NCBI GenBank assembly: GCA_017509205.1
Contig: JAFWQF010000033.1
Span: 1 to 64,000 of the forward strand
Direction of reading: 5' to 3'
Length of the DNA: 64,000 nucleotides
From: Clostridiales bacterium
GTDB taxonomy: Bacteria; Bacillota; Clostridia; Saccharofermentanales; Saccharofermentanaceae
The notes beneath the pieces were generated by a model. It did no database searches, had not been told where the DNA came from, and saw nothing but the letters and a program-made list of their open reading frames with translations. Position 1 is the stretch's first letter, and every line of letters starts with the position of its first letter. The translations under genes were made by a program, and so were the position numbers. Of the stretch, positions 1 to 41,808 are shown piece after piece.

Positions 1-1286
1 CATTTGGAAAAAGCAAAGTCTCCGATAGTCTTAACACTGACCGGGATCGAAACGTCAGTCAGCCCAGTACAATTGGCAAATGCATATTCACCGATAGTAG
101 TAACACCCTTGGGAATGGTAACCTTTGTTAATTTGCTGCAGTAGTCGAAAGCCCTGCCGCCGATCGTCTTTACACTGGCAGGAATAGAAACGCTTGTCAA
201 CGCGGTACAATTGTAAAACGCATAAAGATCAATGGTCGTAACACCCTTGGCAATGGTAACACTTGTTAATCCGCTGCAGTAATAGAAAGTCCTGCCGCTA
301 AGTGTTTTTAAACTTCCAGGAATTGTAATACGCGTCAATCCAGTACAATAGGCAAATACATATTCACCAATAGACGTTACACCCTTGGCAATAGAAACAC
401 TTGTTAATCCACTGCATCTGTAGAAAGCCCTTCCGCCGATCGTTTTTACAGTGGCAGGAATGGAAATACTCTTAAGCTTAGCGCATTTGTAAAAAGCATA
501 CTCACCGATCTTTGTTACGCCCTTGGGAATGTTAATGCTCTCAAGGTTTTCGCAATCAGAAAAAGCCCCATAACCGATCGTAGTAACTTTTGAGGGAATG
601 ACAACTTTCGTCAGACCCTTACAGAATGCAAAAGCATCGTAATTAATTGCTTTCAGTGTTTTAGGAAGCGATACGCTCGTAATTTTAGAGCAGTTGTAAA
701 AAGCATAGTTTCCGATGGTGGTGACACCCTTGGCAACAACAACTTTCGTTATCTTATCTCTATAATCTTTCCACGGTACAGGATTGGCCTGATCGGGCTT
801 ATAAGCGTACATGACACCCTTACCGGATATTGTTAAAACACCGGCAGTACTCAGAGACCAGTTCAGCTTCTTGCCGCACTTGCCTTTAGCCAATGCAGGA
901 GCATCATCAGCCTCAGAACTGTCTTCGTCTTCCAGCTCCTTATCTTCAACTGCTTCAGGATCCTCATCCTCAGTTTCAGCCGGAACCTGTTTCTCTGTCT
1001 CAGCAGGTTCCTCTTTCTGAGTCTGCTCAGGTTCCTGCTTATCTGTCTCGGCAGGTTCCTCTTTCTGAGTCTGCTCGGGTTCCTGCTTCTCTGTTTCTTT
1101 TACAGCAGGCTTTTCAGTCTCCTTGGGAGCTGGTTTTTCTGTTTCTTTTGCTTCCTGCTTTTCTGTCTCTTCAACCTGAGTCTCCTCAGGTGCAGCCTCA
1201 TCTGCCATGACAGAAACAGGCGTCATGACCATAGACATGCACATTGCCGCAGAAAGCATGACTGATGTAACTTTAAGTCGTTTCAT
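1..1286 (-). CDS. BspA-like LRR_5 surface protein, first visible copy of four (3' end cut by window)
   Basis: The 428 visible residues start MKRLKVTSVMLSAAM, a signal peptide ending near VSVMADE, after a strong GGAGG ribosome site. An acidic Glu/Thr/Gln/Lys/Pro linker of roughly 100 residues follows and contains a duplicated 16-residue unit. Then comes the entry module GKCGKKLNWSLS…LTISGKG, followed by about a dozen 23-residue LRR_5 repeats of the form IPxxVTxIGxxAFxxCxxLxxV. The stop codon and the expected Lys-rich tail lie beyond the window edge. It is the last visible gene of a tandem array, 22 bp after the next paralogue. The family is known for secreted, surface-exposed adhesin-like proteins; ligand and anchoring here are unknown. 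Confidence 0.85.
   Translation of the reverse strand, partial: MKRLKVTSVMLSAAMCMSMVMTPVSVMADEAAPEETQVEETEKQEAKETEKPAPKETEKPAVKETEKQEPEQTQKEEPAETDKQEPEQTQKEEPAETEKQVPAETEDEDPEAVEDKELEDEDSSEADDAPALAKGKCGKKLNWSLSTAGVLTISGKGVMYAYKPDQANPVPWKDYRDKITKVVVAKGVTTIGNYAFYNCSKITSVSLPKTLKAINYDAFAFCKGLTKVVIPSKVTTIGYGAFSDCENLESINIPKGVTKIGEYAFYKCAKLKSISIPATVKTIGGRAFYRCSGLTSVSIAKGVTSIGEYVFAYCTGLTRITIPGSLKTLSGRTFYYCSGLTSVTIAKGVTTIDLYAFYNCTALTSVSIPASVKTIGGRAFDYCSKLTKVTIPKGVTTIGEYAFANCTGLTDVSIPVSVKTIGDFAFSK
1003..1098. repeat. 48-bp direct repeat, two copies, in the acidic linker
   Basis: Two adjacent near-identical 48-bp units (1003-1050 and 1051-1098) encode the same 16-residue block, roughly DKQEPEQTQKEEPAET. 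This in-frame minisatellite lengthens the acidic linker of this paralogue relative to the other three. Confidence 0.8.
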
Positions 1287-1308
1287 TTCAGTTCCTCCCT
1301 AAACACCC

Positions 1309-3177
1309 TTATTTCTTTATTTTAACCTTTTTTCCGCAGTTTTTCTTCTTAAAAATCTTCTTGTACTTCTTTACCTTAGATTTCTTGACCTTGACCGTCT
1401 TAACAGAAGATCCCTTCAAAGAGTTCTTTACACCGGACTTAACAAGCTTGGTTGTCTTATTGATTTGCAGCGTCTTGAGATTCTTATCGAGTGCAAATGC
1501 AAAAGGTCCAATCTTCGAAAGAGACTTGGAGGAGAGCTTGAACACTTTGAGTTTCAGACATTTTTCGAATGCTCTTGCTCCTATTGTTTTAAGTCCTGCC
1601 CCGCCGGTAACTGATTCAAGTTTAGGGCATCCTGAGAAGTTTTTCTCTCCAATAGAAATAACATTTGACCCTATTACCAGGGTCTTAAGGTCATCCATTT
1701 TGCCATACTTTTCAATGTTGTCTTCAATCTGTATGCTTGTTACCTTATACTTCACGGTTTTGTACACAACAGTATTAGGGATAACCACACGTTCAGCAGA
1801 AGGACTCAAAGCAACAACGGCAAGTGTTCCTGTTCCGTCTATAGCTGGATTAGTAACCATATAGACTATTGTTCCATCCGGCATAAAAAGGTCACCGGAA
1901 GCTGCGTAAGGATAGATATGAGGTTCAAGATTATTACAGTCTTTAAACACATTATCCGTGCTGTATTTTTTCAGTGTCTCGCTTATCCAGACTTCTTTAA
2001 GATTTGTACATCCTTCAAACGCACAATCAGCTAAAGTCTTGACCGAAAGCGGAATATTAAAGCTTTCAAGGCTCGTGCATCCGTAAAAAGCGTGATATCC
2101 GATGAAAGAGCATCCTGCAATAGGGATACTGACAGACTTCAGCTTCGAACAACGCCTAAACGCTTCTTCATCAATCTTCGTAACGCTTGCAGGAATTGAG
2201 ATTTTTTCAAGCTTACTGCATCCGCTAAAGGCTGCGACGCCAATTGTCTTCAGGCTCTTAGGTAAGGAAACGCTAGTCAATCCGCTGCAGCTGCAAAAAG
2301 CTTCTTTGCCTATTGTTGTCACACCGTTTGGAATGACCAGGTTCGTAAGCTTTCCGCATCCATAAAAAGCTGCCTCACCGATCGTTTTCACGCCGGAACC
2401 GATCGTCAGTTTGTCTAAAGCCATACAATAATAGAACGCCTTATCACCGATGGACGTAACACTCTTCGGAATGGTTACGCTCGTCAGGAAATAGCAATCA
2501 GTAAATGCCCCTTCGCCGATCTTCGTTACTCCATTGGGAATGGATATGGAAGTAAGAGACTGGCAATACTGGAAAGCATATGCTCCGATGGACTTCAAAG
2601 TTTTAGGGAGCGTGAACTTGGGTGTATCGTACAAGCTTGAAAATGCATAGGAACCGATAGTGGTGACCCCCTTGGATACCGTTACCGCCTTGATCTGTGA
2701 ACTGTATTTATTCCAAGGTGCTTTATTAGGTTCGCCGGGATAATCATAGTTGTACATTGCACCTTTGCCGGAGATAGTTAATACTCCCGCTGTGCTCAAA
2801 GTCCACGTAAGTTTTTTACCGCACTTACCGGATGCAACTGCGTCAACGGCTTCACGGGAATCCTCATCTTCAAGGCCCGGTTCTTCAACTTCTTCGCTCT
2901 CCTGCTTTTCAGACTCTGAAGGTTCTTCCTTCTCCGTTTCGGCAGGTTCTTCTTTCTGAGACTCTTCTGTTTCCTGCTTTTCTGTTTCTTTCTCAGCAGG
3001 CTTCTCAGTTTCCTTAGGGGCAGGCTTTTCTGTTTCTTTTTCTTCCGGCTTCTGAGTCTCTTCGGACTGTGTCTCTTCAGGCGCAGTCTCATCTGCCATG
3101 ACAGAAACAGGTGTCATGACCATCGACATGCACATTGCAGCAGAAAGCAGAACAGATGTTACTTTAAGATGTTTCAT
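1309..3177 (-). CDS. BspA-like LRR_5 surface protein (622 aa), second copy
   Basis: Secreted protein: signal peptide (residues 1-28, MKHLKVTSVLLSAAMCMSMV…VMADE), acidic linker to about residue 110 built from ETEKP/EETQ-type words, entry module GKCGKKLTWTLSTAG, then about fifteen LRR_5 repeats. A non-LRR patch (IDGTGTLAVVALSPSAERVVIP…VKYKVTSI) precedes the last repeats. The last 25 residues are extremely basic (KKSKVKKYKKIFKKKNCG…). It starts after GGGAGGG and sits 15 bp behind the next paralogue, so it is probably cotranscribed. The tail may bind anionic wall polymers or another protein's acidic linker; that is inference. No LPXTG motif or SLH domain is visible. Confidence 0.85.
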   Translation of the reverse strand: MKHLKVTSVLLSAAMCMSMVMTPVSVMADETAPEETQSEETQKPEEKETEKPAPKETEKPAEKETEKQETEESQKEEPAETEKEEPSESEKQESEEVEEPGLEDEDSREAVDAVASGKCGKKLTWTLSTAGVLTISGKGAMYNYDYPGEPNKAPWNKYSSQIKAVTVSKGVTTIGSYAFSSLYDTPKFTLPKTLKSIGAYAFQYCQSLTSISIPNGVTKIGEGAFTDCYFLTSVTIPKSVTSIGDKAFYYCMALDKLTIGSGVKTIGEAAFYGCGKLTNLVIPNGVTTIGKEAFCSCSGLTSVSLPKSLKTIGVAAFSGCSKLEKISIPASVTKIDEEAFRRCSKLKSVSIPIAGCSFIGYHAFYGCTSLESFNIPLSVKTLADCAFEGCTNLKEVWISETLKKYSTDNVFKDCNNLEPHIYPYAASGDLFMPDGTIVYMVTNPAIDGTGTLAVVALSPSAERVVIPNTVVYKTVKYKVTSIQIEDNIEKYGKMDDLKTLVIGSNVISIGEKNFSGCPKLESVTGGAGLKTIGARAFEKCLKLKVFKLSSKSLSKIGPFAFALDKNLKTLQINKTTKLVKSGVKNSLKGSSVKTVKVKKSKVKKYKKIFKKKNCGKKVKIKK

Positions 3178-3192
3178 TTCAGACCCTCCCCT

Positions 3193-4890
3193 TTATTTTT
3201 TGACTTTTACTTTTCTACCGCAGTTTTTCTTTTTGAAGATCTTCTTGTACTTCTTTAGCTTTGATTTCTTTACCTTGACGGTCTTTACGGAAGAACCCTT
3301 CATGGAACTCTTTACACCGGACTTTGTTAGCTTTATAGTCTTCTTGATCTGCAGGGTCTTGAGATTCTTATCGAGTGCAAATGCAAAAGGTCCGATCTTC
3401 CAAAGAGCTTTGGATGTGATGTTGAACACCTTAAGGTTGGGGCAATTTGCAAATGCGCGGGTTCCAATGGACTTGAGTCCGGCGCCGCCCGTGACGGAAA
3501 CAAGATTCTTATAACCTGCGAATGCTTTATCATCTATCGTCTGCACATTAGCTCCGATGACAAGTGTCTTCAGCTTGCTGTAAGACGAATCGCCGGCACC
3601 ATTTGGTGTGATCCTGATTACTTTGTATTTGACTCCAAGATTATTGATCTCACTGGGAATAACAATCTTCTCTAATGTATAGTTATATCCCACTAAAGCA
3701 ACAGTGCCTGTTCCGTCAATTGCCGGAAAAAGCACAGCGTATGCAAAATCACCTAAAAATATACCATCACCTTCAAGCGGATAATTAAATGTGCTGATCC
3801 CGCTTAACTTGAAGCAGCCTTGAAAAGCGCCCGAGTTCATTGATTTTTTGAGTTTCAGACTCATCCAGACTTCTTCAAGACTAGCGCATCCGGCAAACGC
3901 ATTGTTTTCCAATGTTTTTACAGTCAGCGGTATCTCAATTTTCTTCAGGCCGGAACACTTTTGAAAAGCACTTTCTTTAATCGTTACAAGACCTGCAAGC
4001 GGAATTTTGACGGTTTCAAGTTTGCTTCCGAAAAAAGCCCTCTCCCCGATAGTTTTCACGCTGACGGGAATGGAAACATTCTTAATTGCAGTGTACTCAA
4101 AAGCACTATCTCCTATCGTTGTAACACCATTAGGTATGTTAACGGAAGAAAGCAGTTCACAATAAATGAACAATCCGGTTGAAATGGCTTTTAACCCCTT
4201 CGGAAGTTTTGCTTCATACAGACGATCACATTCAATAAATGCATATTCACCTATTGTCTTAACGCTGTCAGGTATGGTTATCCTTAAAAGACCTGTACTC
4301 GCGAAAGCACCGGCGCCAATAGTCGTTACCTTTTTGGGAATCGTAATCGATTTAAGATTAATGCATGAAGAAAAGGCAGCTATGCCTATAACCTTTAAAT
4401 TTGCAGGCAGAGATACACTTGCAAGCTGCGGGCAGTAAAAGAATGAGTATGCACCGACAGATGTAATCCCTTTTTTTATAACAACTCTTTTGATCAGATC
4501 TTTTTTGGAAAACCAGGGCGCGTTTGTTTTACCGGTAGCCGTATTATGTGTGTAATTTGTCATGGCACCCGAACCGGAGACCGTGAGGACACCATCCTTG
4601 CTCAAGGACCACTTGGCCTTCTTACCGCATTTGCCGGAAGCCAATGCATCAAGAGCATCATCAGCATCTTCGGCTTCAGGAGTCTGTTCTTTTTCAGTTG
4701 CTTCAGGCTCTTCCTGAGTCTCCTCAGTTTCGTGCTTCTGCGTTTCTTCCGGCTCCTGCTTTTCGGTCTCTTCCACCTGTGTTTCTTCAGGAGCAGATTC
4801 CTCATCTGCAATTACGGAAACGGGTGTCATTACCATCGAAGCACACATTATGGCCGACAGTAAGACTGACGCGAACTTAAGCTGTTTCAT
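3193..4890 (-). CDS. BspA-like LRR_5 surface protein (565 aa), third copy
   Basis: Same architecture as its neighbours with the shortest acidic linker (about residues 28-78). It has the signal peptide MKQLKFASVLLSAIMCASMV, the entry module GKCGKKAKWSLSKDG, LRR_5 repeats, the insert FPAIDGTGTVALVGYNYTLEKIVIP, and a conserved C-terminal block (VTGGAGLKSIGTRAFANCPNL) ending in the Lys tail KKSKLKKYKKIFKKKNCG. LRR cores differ clearly between copies while the ends are almost identical, which suggests gene conversion or purifying selection on the ends. Spacing to both neighbouring paralogues is 15 bp. Confidence 0.85.
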   Translation of the reverse strand: MKQLKFASVLLSAIMCASMVMTPVSVIADEESAPEETQVEETEKQEPEETQKHETEETQEEPEATEKEQTPEAEDADDALDALASGKCGKKAKWSLSKDGVLTVSGSGAMTNYTHNTATGKTNAPWFSKKDLIKRVVIKKGITSVGAYSFFYCPQLASVSLPANLKVIGIAAFSSCINLKSITIPKKVTTIGAGAFASTGLLRITIPDSVKTIGEYAFIECDRLYEAKLPKGLKAISTGLFIYCELLSSVNIPNGVTTIGDSAFEYTAIKNVSIPVSVKTIGERAFFGSKLETVKIPLAGLVTIKESAFQKCSGLKKIEIPLTVKTLENNAFAGCASLEEVWMSLKLKKSMNSGAFQGCFKLSGISTFNYPLEGDGIFLGDFAYAVLFPAIDGTGTVALVGYNYTLEKIVIPSEINNLGVKYKVIRITPNGAGDSSYSKLKTLVIGANVQTIDDKAFAGYKNLVSVTGGAGLKSIGTRAFANCPNLKVFNITSKALWKIGPFAFALDKNLKTLQIKKTIKLTKSGVKSSMKGSSVKTVKVKKSKLKKYKKIFKKKNCGRKVKVKK

Positions 4891-4905
4891 TTATCATTCT
4901 TCCCC

Positions 4906-6717
4906 TTATTTCTTAACTTTTACTTTTTTACCGCAGTTCTTCTTTTTGAAGATCTTCTTGTACTTCTTGACCTTGGATTTCTTAACCTTAACGGTCTTAA
5001 CAGAAGATCCCTTGAGCGAATTCTTAACGCCACTCTTTGTCAGTGACTTTGTGCCCTTTAAATACAAAGTCTTGAGATTCTTATCACCGCTGAAAGCAAA
5101 CGGGCCGATCTTCCAGAGTGCGGCAGAGCTTATCTTGAACACCTTGAGATTCGGGCAGTTGCAGAAAGCCTTGTCTCCTATGGTCTTAAGTCTTCCGCCG
5201 CCGGTTACTGAAACCAGGTTCGTGCATCCCTTGAAAGCAGAATTGCCTATATAAAGAATGTTCGAACCCAGAACGACCTTCTTCACAGTCAGATTATCCA
5301 TAAAACTTTCAGAAGTAATGTCTGTAACCTTATAGTTCTGACCAAGTATCTCAACTACAGCGGGAACGGTTACTGTCTCAGTCTGTTCCTCAACGCCGTA
5401 AAGTGTCACGCATCCTTTTCCGTAAACGGCAGGATATGTAACAGCATAAGTGAAATCCCCTACTCTAAACATCTCGTTGAGTGAAGCATACTTATAATCC
5501 GATATGTTCAAAGATGAAGGACAGCCTGAAAAAACTGACGAATTCAGGTTCTTATGAAGATTCTTGTCCATAATGACTGAATTAAGATTTTTACAATCGG
5601 AAAATGCGGAATCACCAATCTCGATCGTTGTTACCGGAACAGCAAATTTAAAAAGCGAATTGCAGCCTGTAAAGGCTTTTTCTCCAATCGAAACCAATCC
5701 GTTTATCGGAATATCAACGGTCGAAAGCATGTAACAGTTTCCGAAAGCCCGGGGTCCAATTACCTTCACACTCTCGGGAATGCTTACTTTTTTCAGTTTG
5801 CTGCAGTTGCTGAATACCGCTTCACCGATCGAAGTAACACTCGCAGGAATGACTACTTCCTGCACTGCAGTACTTCCAAAAGCACAGACTCCAATGGAAG
5901 TTAAGCCTTTTGACAACGTAATTTCTGATAATAACCAGCAATCTGCAAAAGCATCCTCACCAATTGACTTCACGGTAGAAGGAATTGTAATGCTTTTAAG
6001 ATTAGTAGCTGCGAAAGCTGCCGGACGAATAACGGTTACACCTTTGGGAATGTTAATGCTTTCAAGTGTTGATTCACAAAATGCATATTTACCGATCGAC
6101 TTGACGCTTTTGGGCAAAACGACATTCTTCAATCCGGTTATGGAAAAGGCAGCTTCACCGATAGTTTTAAGCGTGCTTGGTAAAGAAACACTCGTCAAAT
6201 TTCTGCAATAAGAAAAAGCATTCGCTCCAATGGTTGTTACACCTTTGGATACAACAACTTTGTTGATCTTATCAGCGTAACCGAACCAAGGTGATGTAAT
6301 TCTATTCGTAGAATAATTATATTTGTAAGCATACATGGCACCCTTGCCGGTGATCTTAAGTGTACCGTTCTTATCAAGGGTCCACTTGAGCTTTTTACCG
6401 CATTTGCCGGATGCAACAGCATCTTCGGCCTCATGTGCAGCCTCACCTTCAAGCGGAGGTTCTTCGTTTGCTTCAGCAGCCTTTTCTTCAGGCTGTTCTT
6501 CAGTTTCGGCAGGTTCTTCTTCCTGAGTCTCCTCGGGCTCCTGCTTCTCTGTTTCTTTTACGGAAGGCTTTTCTGTTTCCTTTGGCTCCTGCTTTTCCGT
6601 TTCTTCCACCTGAGTTTCTTCAGGCGCAGATGTCTCGTCTGCCATGACAGGAACAGACACCATGGACACACACATAGCCACGGAAAGCAACAATGACGTT
6701 ACCTTGAAATGTTTCAT
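4906..6717 (-). CDS. BspA-like LRR_5 surface protein (603 aa), promoter-proximal copy
   Basis: First gene of the array. Signal peptide MKHFKVTSLLLSVAMCVSMVSVPVMA, acidic linker to about residue 105, entry module GKCGKKLKWTLDKNG, about fifteen LRR_5 repeats with many conserved Cys in AFxxCxxL, an insert module (AVYGKGCVTLYGVEEQTETVTVP), then the common end block and basic Lys tail. The start follows GGGGGA eight bases upstream. One promoter upstream could drive all four copies. LRR_5/BspA proteins in other bacteria bind host or matrix proteins, but nothing here identifies a ligand. Confidence 0.85.
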   Translation of the reverse strand: MKHFKVTSLLLSVAMCVSMVSVPVMADETSAPEETQVEETEKQEPKETEKPSVKETEKQEPEETQEEEPAETEEQPEEKAAEANEEPPLEGEAAHEAEDAVASGKCGKKLKWTLDKNGTLKITGKGAMYAYKYNYSTNRITSPWFGYADKINKVVVSKGVTTIGANAFSYCRNLTSVSLPSTLKTIGEAAFSITGLKNVVLPKSVKSIGKYAFCESTLESINIPKGVTVIRPAAFAATNLKSITIPSTVKSIGEDAFADCWLLSEITLSKGLTSIGVCAFGSTAVQEVVIPASVTSIGEAVFSNCSKLKKVSIPESVKVIGPRAFGNCYMLSTVDIPINGLVSIGEKAFTGCNSLFKFAVPVTTIEIGDSAFSDCKNLNSVIMDKNLHKNLNSSVFSGCPSSLNISDYKYASLNEMFRVGDFTYAVTYPAVYGKGCVTLYGVEEQTETVTVPAVVEILGQNYKVTDITSESFMDNLTVKKVVLGSNILYIGNSAFKGCTNLVSVTGGGRLKTIGDKAFCNCPNLKVFKISSAALWKIGPFAFSGDKNLKTLYLKGTKSLTKSGVKNSLKGSSVKTVKVKKSKVKKYKKIFKKKNCGKKVKVKK

Positions 6718-6830: not shown

Positions 6831-6855
6831 AAAAAATCCCGGATTGCTCCGGGAT
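6831..6855 (-). terminator. Rho-independent terminator of prfB
   Basis: Perfect 8-bp stem ATCCCGGA/TCCGGGAT with a 4-nt loop, followed on the minus strand by a run of six Ts. It lies just after the prfB stop and separates that operon from the LRR array. Confidence 0.85.
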
Positions 6856-6882
6856 CTTAAGTGCTTATTTAATATATTAAGA

Positions 6883-7998
6883 TTACTTCTCGTTCTTCAT
6901 TCCTGAAAGGTAAGCATTGATGAAGCCGTCGAGGTTGCCGTCCATTACGGCATCAACGTCCACTTCCTCGTAACCCGTGCGGTTGTCCTTAACGAGCGTG
7001 TACGGGCAGAAAACGTATGACCTGATCTGTGACCCCCATGCAATATCCATCTGGTTGCCCTTGAGGTCTTCGATCTTCTCCATCTCGGATGCCCTTGCGA
7101 GTGCGAAAAGCTTTGCCTTGAGCATCTTAAGGCAGGTTTCCCTGTTCTGGAGCTGAGATCTTTCAGCCTGGCAGGAAACAACGATGCCCGTGGGATTATG
7201 CGTCATTCTGACCGCGGTATCGGTCTTGTTGATGTGCTGACCGCCCTTACCTGTTGAACGGTATGTATCGACTCTGACTTCGGTCATGTCGATCTTGATG
7301 TCGTCCTCGGTCTTCTGGTCGAGCTCGGGGATGACTTCGCATGAAGCAAAGGATGTATGTCTTCTTCCTGCGGAATCGAACGGTGAAATCCTTACAAGAC
7401 GGTGAACGCCGAGTTCAGACCTTAAGAAACCGTATGCATACTCACCCTTGATCATGATGGAAACAGACTGGATGCCTGCGGTATCGCCTTCGACATAGTC
7501 GAGTTCTTCAACTGCGAAGCCGTGGTTTTCAGCCCATCTTGTATACATTCTGTAGAGCATGGAGCACCAGTCCATGGCTTCCGTTCCGCCTGCGCCCGCA
7601 TGAAGCGTGAGCGTGGCGTTATTTGCATCGTAAGGTCCCGTGAGGAGCGTCTCAAGACGCATCTTCTCAAAGGCTTCCTTGAACTTTGCAACGTTTTCAC
7701 GGAGCTCTGTGAGAGAATCCATGTCCTCTTCCTCGTTTGCGAGCTCGCAGAGAGCAAGAAGGTCCTCTCTTTCGGCAGCAAGCGAATTGTAGCTCTCAAC
7801 CTTCTTCTTGAGCTGTCCGAGCCTCTGAGTCAGTTCCGTTGCCTTGTCCGGATTGTTCCAGAAATCAGGCTCGGTAGTACGGTTCTCAAGTTCGCTGATC
7901 TGGTCACTTACGTGATCGATGTGCAGAGCATCCCTGAGCTTGGCTACGGGTTCTTCGAATGACTCGAGGTCAAGTCTGATGTTGTCGAATTCAAGCAT
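6883..7998 (-). CDS. prfB: Peptide chain release factor 2
   Basis: RF2 (371 aa) recognises UGA/UAA stop codons and triggers peptidyl-tRNA hydrolysis. The catalytic loop GGQHINKT is present, and the RF2-type codon-recognition tripeptide SPF occurs in RISPFDSAGRRHTSF. The N-terminus (MLEFDNIRLDLESF…TEPDFWNN) reads through in one frame: the in-frame UGA and CTTTGA slippery site that control prfB by +1 frameshifting in E. coli and B. subtilis are absent. It is the last gene of the lrp–aminotransferase–prfB operon, 3 bp after the aminotransferase stop, and is followed by a strong terminator. Confidence 0.97.
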   Translation of the reverse strand: MLEFDNIRLDLESFEEPVAKLRDALHIDHVSDQISELENRTTEPDFWNNPDKATELTQRLGQLKKKVESYNSLAAEREDLLALCELANEEEDMDSLTELRENVAKFKEAFEKMRLETLLTGPYDANNATLTLHAGAGGTEAMDWCSMLYRMYTRWAENHGFAVEELDYVEGDTAGIQSVSIMIKGEYAYGFLRSELGVHRLVRISPFDSAGRRHTSFASCEVIPELDQKTEDDIKIDMTEVRVDTYRSTGKGGQHINKTDTAVRMTHNPTGIVVSCQAERSQLQNRETCLKMLKAKLFALARASEMEKIEDLKGNQMDIAWGSQIRSYVFCPYTLVKDNRTGYEEVDVDAVMDGNLDGFINAYLSGMKNEK

Positions 7999-40113: not shown

Positions 40114-41808
40114 TCAGCAGGACAGTTTGAGCCAACCGGCGGGAACGTCATAAACGTTCGGTGCCTTCATCCTGAACATTGCAGTTTTCGCGTCAGGCAT
40201 AGCATTTCCGCTGTCTGAGAGCCTGCGCATGTATAATCTCGCACTGATCTTGCTGCCGGATCCGACATCATACTGTGAGGCGCTTCCGAGGTTGATAAAA
40301 GGCACTGCTTCCTCACCTGCTCCGCATGTTACGGTGGCAAGGCGGAAATTATCCAGAGCAGCATCTTCTTCGCTCCTGTAGATACCGTACTGTGCGCCGT
40401 TAACGGCATCACTTCCCATTACCTTCTGAACGGGATCAGTATATCCCTGGGAAGCGGAAGCCTTGGGATTTCCGATGTGGATGACCATTACGCGCTGATT
40501 GGTATTGCCCTGTGCGGTGTAGTAAGGCTCTCTCCAGTGAAGTCCCGCCTTGACCTTGTTGGAAGTCTCGTAGAACCACTGTCCGTTCCTCATCTTTCCC
40601 TTGCTGTCAGCATGGGTGTAGTTGTAGCCTGCGTAAACGGCTGCGTGGCCCCAGACGAAGAGATTGCCCTCGCCCCTGACATAGTGGCCGTTAACCTTCT
40701 TCTTTCCGCCGTGAGCGCCGTAATTGTTCTTGTAGTACTTTCCGTCCTTGCAAAGATATGTGGATACATATCCGCCGAAGAGAACGATGTCGCCAGGCTG
40801 GGCATTGAGAGCCTTCATGCAGTCTCCCAGAGACTTGTAATCAGAGACCTTTACTCCGCCGTAGCAGTTGGGCTTTGAAAGAAGGTGCTCTGCGAAATTC
40901 GTGCAGTGGAACCAGTTTGCTCCGTTTCTGCTTATGGAACTGCCGCTGACATTTATGACCTTTGCCTTCTTCATTATGTTGACGGCATGCTTGGTCTTGC
41001 TGTTCTTCATGCTCTTCGTGAACTTGATCTTAAAGCTCTTGCCCTTGCCGACCGAGGTTGCGACTCCCAATGCTTTTGCATAGGAAGACAGGCAGTAGGA
41101 AATGCAGTCCATGTCATTGGTATATGTGGTGCCCGCCATCTTCCTGCATGCTGCGAGAACTTCATTGCCGAAGGATTCACGGGTCTTGCCGAGAACCTTA
41201 AGATCATTTTCCGTGATCCAGGTAAACTCGCCCTTTCCGTCCCTGCCGGCTTTATTCTTGCGCCACGGCTTGGGGGCCTTTCCGATATATGCTGTACCGA
41301 CATTGTATGTGCCTTTGTAGTACAGGCCGGGCTTTTTGAGGACCGGGCACTCATCGTAGGCATCAGAAGCGGTATAGGTTATTCCTTTGCCTCCGGTGAT
41401 GGTCTTGAGCGCGGTGCAGCCGTAGAATGCCCTTGAGCACACCCTGGTTACGTTCTTGCCGATGGTAACGCTCTTGATCGTGGCATTGCCCTCAAAAGCG
41501 GACTGGGCGATCCAGAGGACCTTATAAGAGACGTCCTGGTATTTGATTACGTTGGGAACAGTGAAGGTCTCGACATTGGGATTTAGCAGGCCGACGAAAG
41601 CCGCGCTGTCCTTCGAATATATCCTGTATATGCCGTTGCTTATGTATATGTCTTTGTCAGACACAAAATCCGCATCAGAAAAAGTAACCGATGCAGCGTC
41701 AGTGTCGGCTGCCGCATCCTGCGAAGGTACGGCAAAAGCCATGCCTGAAATAACCGTCAGGCAAAGGACCAGACTTATTAGACGCTTAAAAACAAATGAA
41801 TCCCTCAT
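40114..41808 (-). CDS. Secreted LRR_5 / NlpC-P60-like protein with a prealbumin-like C-terminus
   Basis: 564 aa: signal peptide (1-26), a β-rich entry (43-100) and LRR_5 patch (AQSAFEGNATIKSVTI, SRAFYGCTALKTITGG) matching the end module of the LRR array at 1-6.7 kb. Next comes an NlpC/P60-like cysteine peptidase: D234-C235 in NDMDCISYCLSSYAKALG, PGDIVLFGG (338-346) and H388 in VWGHAAVYAGY. A region of about 100 residues inserted between Cys and PGD includes a second Cys (WFHCTNFAEHLL). The C-terminal ~90 residues (NGAQYGIYRSEEDA…LATVTCG) look like a SpaA/Cna-B prealbumin domain. Peptidoglycan stem-peptide cleavage is likely but not certain. Confidence 0.8.
   Translation of the reverse strand: MRDSFVFKRLISLVLCLTVISGMAFAVPSQDAAADTDAASVTFSDADFVSDKDIYISNGIYRIYSKDSAAFVGLLNPNVETFTVPNVIKYQDVSYKVLWIAQSAFEGNATIKSVTIGKNVTRVCSRAFYGCTALKTITGGKGITYTASDAYDECPVLKKPGLYYKGTYNVGTAYIGKAPKPWRKNKAGRDGKGEFTWITENDLKVLGKTRESFGNEVLAACRKMAGTTYTNDMDCISYCLSSYAKALGVATSVGKGKSFKIKFTKSMKNSKTKHAVNIMKKAKVINVSGSSISRNGANWFHCTNFAEHLLSKPNCYGGVKVSDYKSLGDCMKALNAQPGDIVLFGGYVSTYLCKDGKYYKNNYGAHGGKKKVNGHYVRGEGNLFVWGHAAVYAGYNYTHADSKGKMRNGQWFYETSNKVKAGLHWREPYYTAQGNTNQRVMVIHIGNPKASASQGYTDPVQKVMGSDAVNGAQYGIYRSEEDAALDNFRLATVTCGAGEEAVPFINLGSASQYDVGSGSKISARLYMRRLSDSGNAMPDAKTAMFRMKAPNVYDVPAGWLKLSC

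What the first reader, a model, noticed from the sequence alone, without database searches (positions are those of the whole stretch)
1..6717. Tandem array of four charge-polarised LRR surface proteins
Four adjacent paralogues share the same plan: signal peptide, acidic Glu-rich linker, LRR_5 core, and (in the three complete genes) an about 25-residue Lys-rich tail with one Cys. Ends are nearly identical while cores differ. The opposite charges of linker and tail could let the proteins bind one another in a head-to-tail lattice or hold the tail on anionic wall polymers; no LPXTG, SLH or lipid anchor is seen. Linker length varies by copy and repeat number.
Basis: partly seen in the sequence, partly recalled or inferred. 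Interest (0 to 1): 0.6.

Follow-up and report, generated by a model that had tools for sequence, protein, structure and literature searches.

The report
Mosaic surface LRR genes, shared cap
A rumen-type Clostridia bacterium carries a row of secreted leucine-rich-repeat surface proteins whose lysine-rich end is predicted to be a folded cap rather than a loose charged tail; the same end sits on several other kinds of secreted protein, and in related species the middle (likely binding) part of such genes has been swapped between species while the ends stayed put.

Summary
The observation mostly holds: four adjacent minus-strand BspA-type LRR_5 genes (one cut by the contig start) with signal peptides, acidic linkers and, in the three complete genes, a 36-residue Lys-rich C-terminus (net +18). 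The interpretation mostly does not hold. AlphaFold folds the 'tail' confidently (pLDDT 92-97) as a strand-helix-strand C-cap of the LRR solenoid; its Cys is not conserved. Linker and tail occur independently: 28 of 67 secreted tail proteins lack a Glu-rich linker, and about a dozen linker proteins in this genome end in a different domain. The tail closes a ~185-residue C-terminal module found at the extreme C-terminus of some 80 proteins in about ten related rumen-type genomes, including CHAP, heparinase-like and beta-propeller-like proteins. Tail near-identity reflects purifying selection, not gene conversion (10/32 fourfold sites identical). The array is syntenic after prfB, with one to at least five copies. 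New: in two pairs of related species the LRR core is 95-99% identical at silent sites while the N-terminal end, and in one pair clearly both ends, are diverged: inter-species core exchange. Surface retention by the module is inferred, not shown. New variant of a known kind.

The parts
4906..6717 (-). W1: secreted BspA-type LRR protein, 603 aa
   Evidence: ORF; LRR_5 E 1.1e-85; AlphaFold mean pLDDT 84.8
3193..4890 (-). W2: paralogue, 565 aa
1309..3177 (-). W3: paralogue, 622 aa
1..1286 (-). W4: paralogue, 428 aa seen, 3' end beyond the contig start
6409..6636 (-). W1 acidic Glu-rich linker (76 aa, net -24), predicted disordered
4636..4803 (-). W2 acidic linker (56 aa, net -21)
2830..3090 (-). 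W3 acidic linker (87 aa, net -25)
885..1199 (-). W4 acidic linker (105 aa, net -28)
4909..5463 (-). W1 shared C-terminal module (185 aa), also on other secreted proteins
3196..3753 (-). W2 C-terminal module
1312..1875 (-). W3 C-terminal module
4909..5016 (-). W1 Lys-rich C-cap (last 36 aa, net +18): strand-helix-strand
   Evidence: AlphaFold strand 574-577, helices 579-588 and 591-594, strand 599-601, pLDDT 92-97
3196..3303 (-). W2 Lys-rich C-cap
1312..1419 (-). W3 Lys-rich C-cap
6833..6858 (-). terminator-like hairpin between prfB (6883-7998) and the array
   Evidence: sequence
1..141 (-). stretch identical to the start of array contig G025:C103 (probable assembly-graph junction)

Best explanation
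The region is an operon-like array of secreted BspA-type LRR surface proteins. Shown by computation: each has a signal peptide, an acidic spacer (disordered in the W1 model), a variable basic LRR solenoid and, where complete, a conserved ~185-aa C-terminal module closed by a Lys-rich cap predicted to fold as strand-helix-strand; the module also ends other secreted proteins; in related species the LRR core has moved between species as a cassette while gene ends stayed local. Inferred: the variable solenoid is the ligand- or fibre-binding face; the spacer separates it from the N-terminus; the basic C-terminal module keeps the protein at the cell surface without covalent linkage, probably by contact with anionic wall polymers; the conserved N-cap and C-terminal module also serve as homology arms for replacing the binding core. 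Confidence is about 0.9 for anatomy and evolution and 0.45 for the whole mechanism.
For: Folded cap, disordered linker. Module at the extreme C-terminus of about 80 proteins, none followed by other residues, joined to unrelated N-terminal parts: CHAP plus ricin-type lectin, heparinase II/III-like, transglutaminase-like, InlB B-repeats, beta-propeller-like. 67 of 70 complete carriers have a signal-like N-terminus. Tail conserved at 89-97% protein identity while its fourfold sites are near random. No LPXTG or SLH on the window proteins; no sortase match in 2 of 10 module-bearing genomes (drafts). Core exchange: fourfold identity 7/18, then 149/150, then 18/39 along one gene between G025 and G037, against 28/74 in the neighbouring gene; a similar profile in G016/G023.
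Against: No binding or localisation data. Lys is preferred over Arg in the LRR cores as well (147:16), so cap lysines may only follow a general bias of these proteins. A cap that merely ends the solenoid would also be conserved and also be C-terminal. Exchange was seen in relatives, not in the window's own genes, and all genomes are drafts, mostly MAGs.
Confidence: 0.45

Rival explanations
1. The Lys-rich end is only a structural cap that shields the last LRR and has no attachment role; its charge reflects the general Lys preference of these secreted proteins, which are held in some other way or released.
For: Predicted cap fold; core Lys:Arg 147:16 against 77:51 in three housekeeping proteins; diverged caps close LRR_5 proteins in Lachnospiraceae.
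Against: Near-invariant lysines at many positions and net +13 to +19 across 70 tails; the short LRR plus cap is attached to non-LRR enzymes, which have no long solenoid to cap.
Confidence: 0.35
2. The proteins are released or loosely held extracellular binders whose whole basic LRR surface sticks to anionic plant polysaccharide (such as pectin) or DNA in the rumen.
For: Basic cores, pI 9.2-9.7; no covalent anchor found; relatives come largely from rumen and omasum; heparinase-like carriers act on acidic glycans by family.
Against: Does not explain why one C-terminal module is shared by wall-type (CHAP) and other enzymes; no binding data.
Confidence: 0.12
3. One reading: acidic linkers bind basic tails of neighbouring molecules in a head-to-tail lattice.
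For: Opposite charges in the same proteins; 15-22 bp gaps suggest co-expression.
Against: Linker and tail are inherited independently; the linker varies in length and is predicted disordered; the LRR core is as basic as the tail, so there is no specific partner site.
Confidence: 0.05

Closest known systems
BspA-type (TpLRR, Pfam LRR_5) surface proteins, e.g. Tannerella forsythia BspA and Treponema LrrA; solved LRR proteins 4fs7, 4h09, 4gt6, 4oju, 6mlx
   Same: LRR_5 repeats and LRR fold; secreted; BspA and LrrA are reported surface adhesins (PMC2843621).
   Different: Acidic spacer and Lys-rich folded C-cap module; no solved chain matches the cap by sequence.
Basic terminal domain (BTD, FPm-1) of Fibrobacter succinogenes enzymes
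   Same: Basic terminal module shared by many secreted rumen enzymes of different catalytic families (PMC3079729).
   Different: Different phylum; homology was not tested here; comparison is of plan only.
Non-covalent wall-attachment modules of Gram-positives (SLH, CWB2, SH3-type/GW, SLAP)
   Same: Would do the same job if the inference is right: terminal modules on varied secreted proteins (PMC5817068).
   Different: No Pfam match to any of these on the proteins scanned.
Recombining surface-gene cassettes, e.g. Clostridioides difficile S-layer cassette
   Same: Surface genes diversified by homologous recombination (PMC7677006).
   Different: Here only the LRR core inside a gene is exchanged, between species, with the ends left local.
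LRR_5-dockerin cellulosomal proteins of rumen Ruminococcus
   Same: Secreted LRR_5 proteins with an attachment module from a rumen consortium (PMC7480376).
   Different: Attachment there is by dockerin; no dockerin match on the proteins scanned here.

Membership tests
BspA-type LRR (LRR_5) surface proteins | LRR_5 repeats above the curated cut-off | tested here: met
   255-354 bits against a cut-off of 27.7
BspA-type LRR (LRR_5) surface proteins | BspA-like LRR solenoid fold | tested here: met
   best PDB matches of the W1 model are BspA-type LRR proteins, E 1.3e-17 for 4fs7; TM-scores are modest (0.28-0.53), as usual for long curved solenoids
BspA-type LRR (LRR_5) surface proteins | secretion signal | tested here: met
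   N-terminal hydrophobic segment and AxA-like end by hydropathy and inspection; no SignalP run
BspA-type LRR (LRR_5) surface proteins | located on the cell surface, adhesive | not testable with these tools
   needs fractionation and binding assays
Sortase-anchored LPXTG proteins | C-terminal LPXTG, hydrophobic segment, basic tail | tested here: not met
   no Gram_pos_anchor match; C-termini end in VKVKK with no hydrophobic segment, although one sortase gene exists in the genome
SLH / CWB2 / SH3-type wall-binding proteins | one of the known wall-binding Pfam domains | tested here: not met
   only LRR-type families found in the window proteins
Lipoproteins | lipobox at the signal peptide end | tested here: not met
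   signal peptides end in VMADE-like sites without a lipobox Cys (inspection)
Non-covalent cell-wall attachment module (functional class) | terminal module shared by otherwise unrelated secreted proteins | tested here: met
Non-covalent cell-wall attachment module (functional class) | binds the cell wall or its polymers | not testable with these tools
   needs a binding assay
Fibrobacter basic terminal domain | sequence homology to BTD/FPm-1 | not tested
   no BTD sequence or model was compared

The most novel reading that the evidence does not exclude
The ~185-residue LRR-plus-basic-cap module is an undescribed portable, non-covalent surface-attachment module of a rumen clostridial lineage, and its conserved ends double as recombination arms that let related species trade LRR binding cores while keeping their own export and attachment ends.
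Probability: 0.35. Interest if true: 0.65.

Novelty: new variant of a known kind. Interest (0 to 1): 0.45.

Why it matters
This genome has 56 LRR_5 matches in about 20 proteins, and the array proteins have no known anchor. A C-terminal module shared by a CHAP protein, lyase-like enzymes and LRR proteins is a concrete, testable candidate for how such proteins are kept at the surface. Exchange of LRR cores between species shows that the probable binding part is traded, as expected for adhesins under shifting substrate, host or phage pressure.

Tried and rejected
Gene conversion as the cause of identical tails: rejected, fourfold sites near random. Tail as an array-specific feature: rejected, nine genes in this genome carry it. 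Concerted evolution by species: not seen. Cys cross-linking by the tail: unlikely, Cys is often Ser. Wide occurrence of the cap: among 398 genomes sampled in the phylum only the window's own genome matched at E <= 0.001, although weaker caps occur in some Lachnospiraceae and one Coriobacteriia record. Solved structure of the cap: none by sequence. Recent exchange of the window's own cores: no near-identical match in 85 genomes of the genus. Raw identity blocks as evidence of exchange: dropped in favour of silent-site profiles, because conserved housekeeping genes also give 250-560 bp blocks above 95%. Promoter scan was at chance level. The first tail logo was out of register and was redone; a first linker/core charge table failed to find the linkers and was redone.

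Full report
WHAT IS THERE. The window is the start of contig C31 of a 2.38-Mb draft genome. Four minus-strand ORFs fill 1-6717: W1 603 aa, W2 565 aa, W3 622 aa and W4 (428 aa, cut by the contig start). Gaps are 15, 15 and 22 bp with ribosome-binding-site-like sequences, and a terminator-like hairpin separates prfB from W1, so the four are probably co-transcribed from their own promoter (inference). All four are LRR_5/BspA-type. Each has a signal peptide, an acidic linker (56-105 aa, net -21 to -28) and a basic LRR core (net +21 to +29); the three complete ones end in 36 Lys-rich residues, net +18.

THE TAIL IS PREDICTED TO BE A FOLDED CAP. AlphaFold on W1 with 25 related sequences gives pLDDT of 90 or more for 475 of 602 residues. 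The signal peptide and linker are disordered (pLDDT about 28). The tail is strand 574-577, helix 579-588, short helix 591-594 and strand 599-601 at pLDDT 92-97 (model numbering is one less than protein numbering). The best PDB matches are BspA-type LRR proteins. In 70 in-register tails many V, Y, F, G and K positions are near-invariant, while the Cys position is Ser in 37 and Cys in 29. Diverged versions such as VPKSKVKxYKxxF close LRR_5 proteins in Lachnospiraceae.

THE END IS A SHARED C-TERMINAL MODULE. Nine genes in this genome carry the tail. A ~185-aa module ending in it occurs in about ten of some 85 genomes of the genus (a DNA search finds the same set plus one weak match). Named relatives are mostly rumen and omasum MAGs labelled Saccharofermentans, Clostridiales, Oscillospiraceae or Ruminococcaceae. 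It lies at the extreme C-terminus with nothing after it. N-terminal parts include CHAP plus ricin-type lectin plus InlB B-repeats, heparinase II/III-like, weak transglutaminase-core matches and large InlB-repeat proteins, and a beta-propeller-like domain (moderate model, mean pLDDT 75). More distant clostridia have diverged caps on GH9 and GH43-CBM6 enzymes. Of 70 complete tail proteins 67 have a signal-like N-terminus; the other three have doubtful starts.

LINKER AND TAIL ARE INDEPENDENT. Of the 67, 39 have a Glu-rich linker and 28 do not. In this genome about a dozen other secreted proteins have the same kind of linker but end in an Ig-like domain with a terminal KIKVK-type motif. A linker-tail lattice would need the two to travel together.

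EVOLUTION OF THE ARRAY. Tail protein identity among W1-W3 is 89-97%, yet its fourfold-degenerate sites are only 4/11, 4/11 and 2/10 identical, as low as in the core: old duplicates kept similar by protein-level selection, not recent conversion. The locus is syntenic (aminotransferase, prfB, array, PHP-type phosphatase gene): five copies in G023, four in G037, one plus a tail-less remnant in G091, at least four in G025 before the PHP gene. Copies do not group by species, though many deep branches are unresolved.

CORE EXCHANGE BETWEEN SPECIES. On contigs anchored by syntenic neighbours (G025 C44, sheep omasum; G037 C106, water buffalo rumen) one array gene is a mosaic: fourfold identity is 7/18 over codons 0-80, 149/150 over codons 120-440 and 18/39 after codon 440; the neighbouring PHP gene has 28/74 (a coarser cut, codons 80-430, gave 154/158). 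A second pair (G016 and G023, a tail gene at another locus) has 12/33 over codons 0-80, 107/110 over 120-360 and a more gradual decay afterwards, so there only the left boundary is sharp. A third case is a two-gene block 99% identical over 3.7 kb between G023 and contig C103 binned with G025, against about 83-84% for prfB and flanking regions in genome pairs of this clade. Boundaries fall in the conserved N-cap region and in or near the C-terminal module, which suggests that the conserved ends act as homology arms (inference). Conserved housekeeping genes also give 250-560 bp blocks above 95%, and one other block of about 1.1 kb lies outside the arrays, so silent-site profiles rather than raw identity carry the argument. 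The window's own cores have no near-identical partner in the genus sample.

ASSEMBLY NOTE. The reverse complement of the window's first 141 bp is identical to the first 141 bp of contig C103 of G025, and contigs C16 and C93 of the window's genome also overlap by exactly 141 bp. This is what a k=141 assembly graph leaves at a branch, so C103 is a possible continuation of the array, and the two genomes may come from the same assembly (inference). If so, W4 ends in the tail (the C103 fragment does) and the array has about eight genes.

MECHANISM. Shown by computation: anatomy, predicted cap, shared module, decoupled linker, protein-level selection, core exchange in relatives. Inferred: the LRR core is the binding face, the acidic linker a spacer, the basic C-terminal module a non-covalent surface-retention device. 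The strongest alternative is that the cap is only a fold terminator and its lysines follow the Lys preference of these secreted cores (Lys:Arg 147:16 in cores, 77:51 in three housekeeping proteins).

NOVELTY. LRR_5 surface proteins, wall-binding terminal modules and recombining surface genes are known kinds (PMC2843621, PMC5817068, PMC7677006), and basic terminal modules on secreted rumen enzymes are known in Fibrobacter (PMC3079729). No Pfam or NCBIfam model specific to this module was hit and no PDB chain matches the cap by sequence. New variant of a known kind.

Noticed in passing
window 1-141 with L185 1-141; L073 end with L077 start: Contig ends overlap by exactly 141 bp, as a k=141 assembly graph leaves; contig C103 binned in G025 may continue the window's array, and C16/C93 together encode one very long InlB-repeat protein with the same C-terminal module.
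   Followed up: partly
L074, L075, L079-L084, L086, L088 (same genome): About a dozen secreted proteins share a Glu-rich linker but end in an Ig-like domain with a basic C-terminus ending in KIKVK; a second, non-homologous basic C-terminal type.
   Followed up: partly
L076 4230-6284: CHAP plus ricin-type lectin plus InlB B-repeat protein ending in the same LRR-cap module, without a Glu linker.
   Followed up: partly
L108 5652-6617: Tail-less 321-aa remnant of an array gene next to the single intact copy in G091.
   Followed up: no
L190 5779-11018 and L192 6196-11418: A second conserved cluster of tail genes: a short LRR protein followed by two beta-propeller-like proteins with the same C-terminal module.
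   Followed up: partly
L109 1759-2836 against L190: A block of about 1.1 kb, 97.9% identical between G016 and G069, outside the LRR arrays; possible transfer of a neighbouring gene.
   Followed up: no
window 40114-41808 (-): Another secreted-type ORF (564 aa) with a weak LRR_5 match at 41335-41511 and no basic tail.
   Followed up: no
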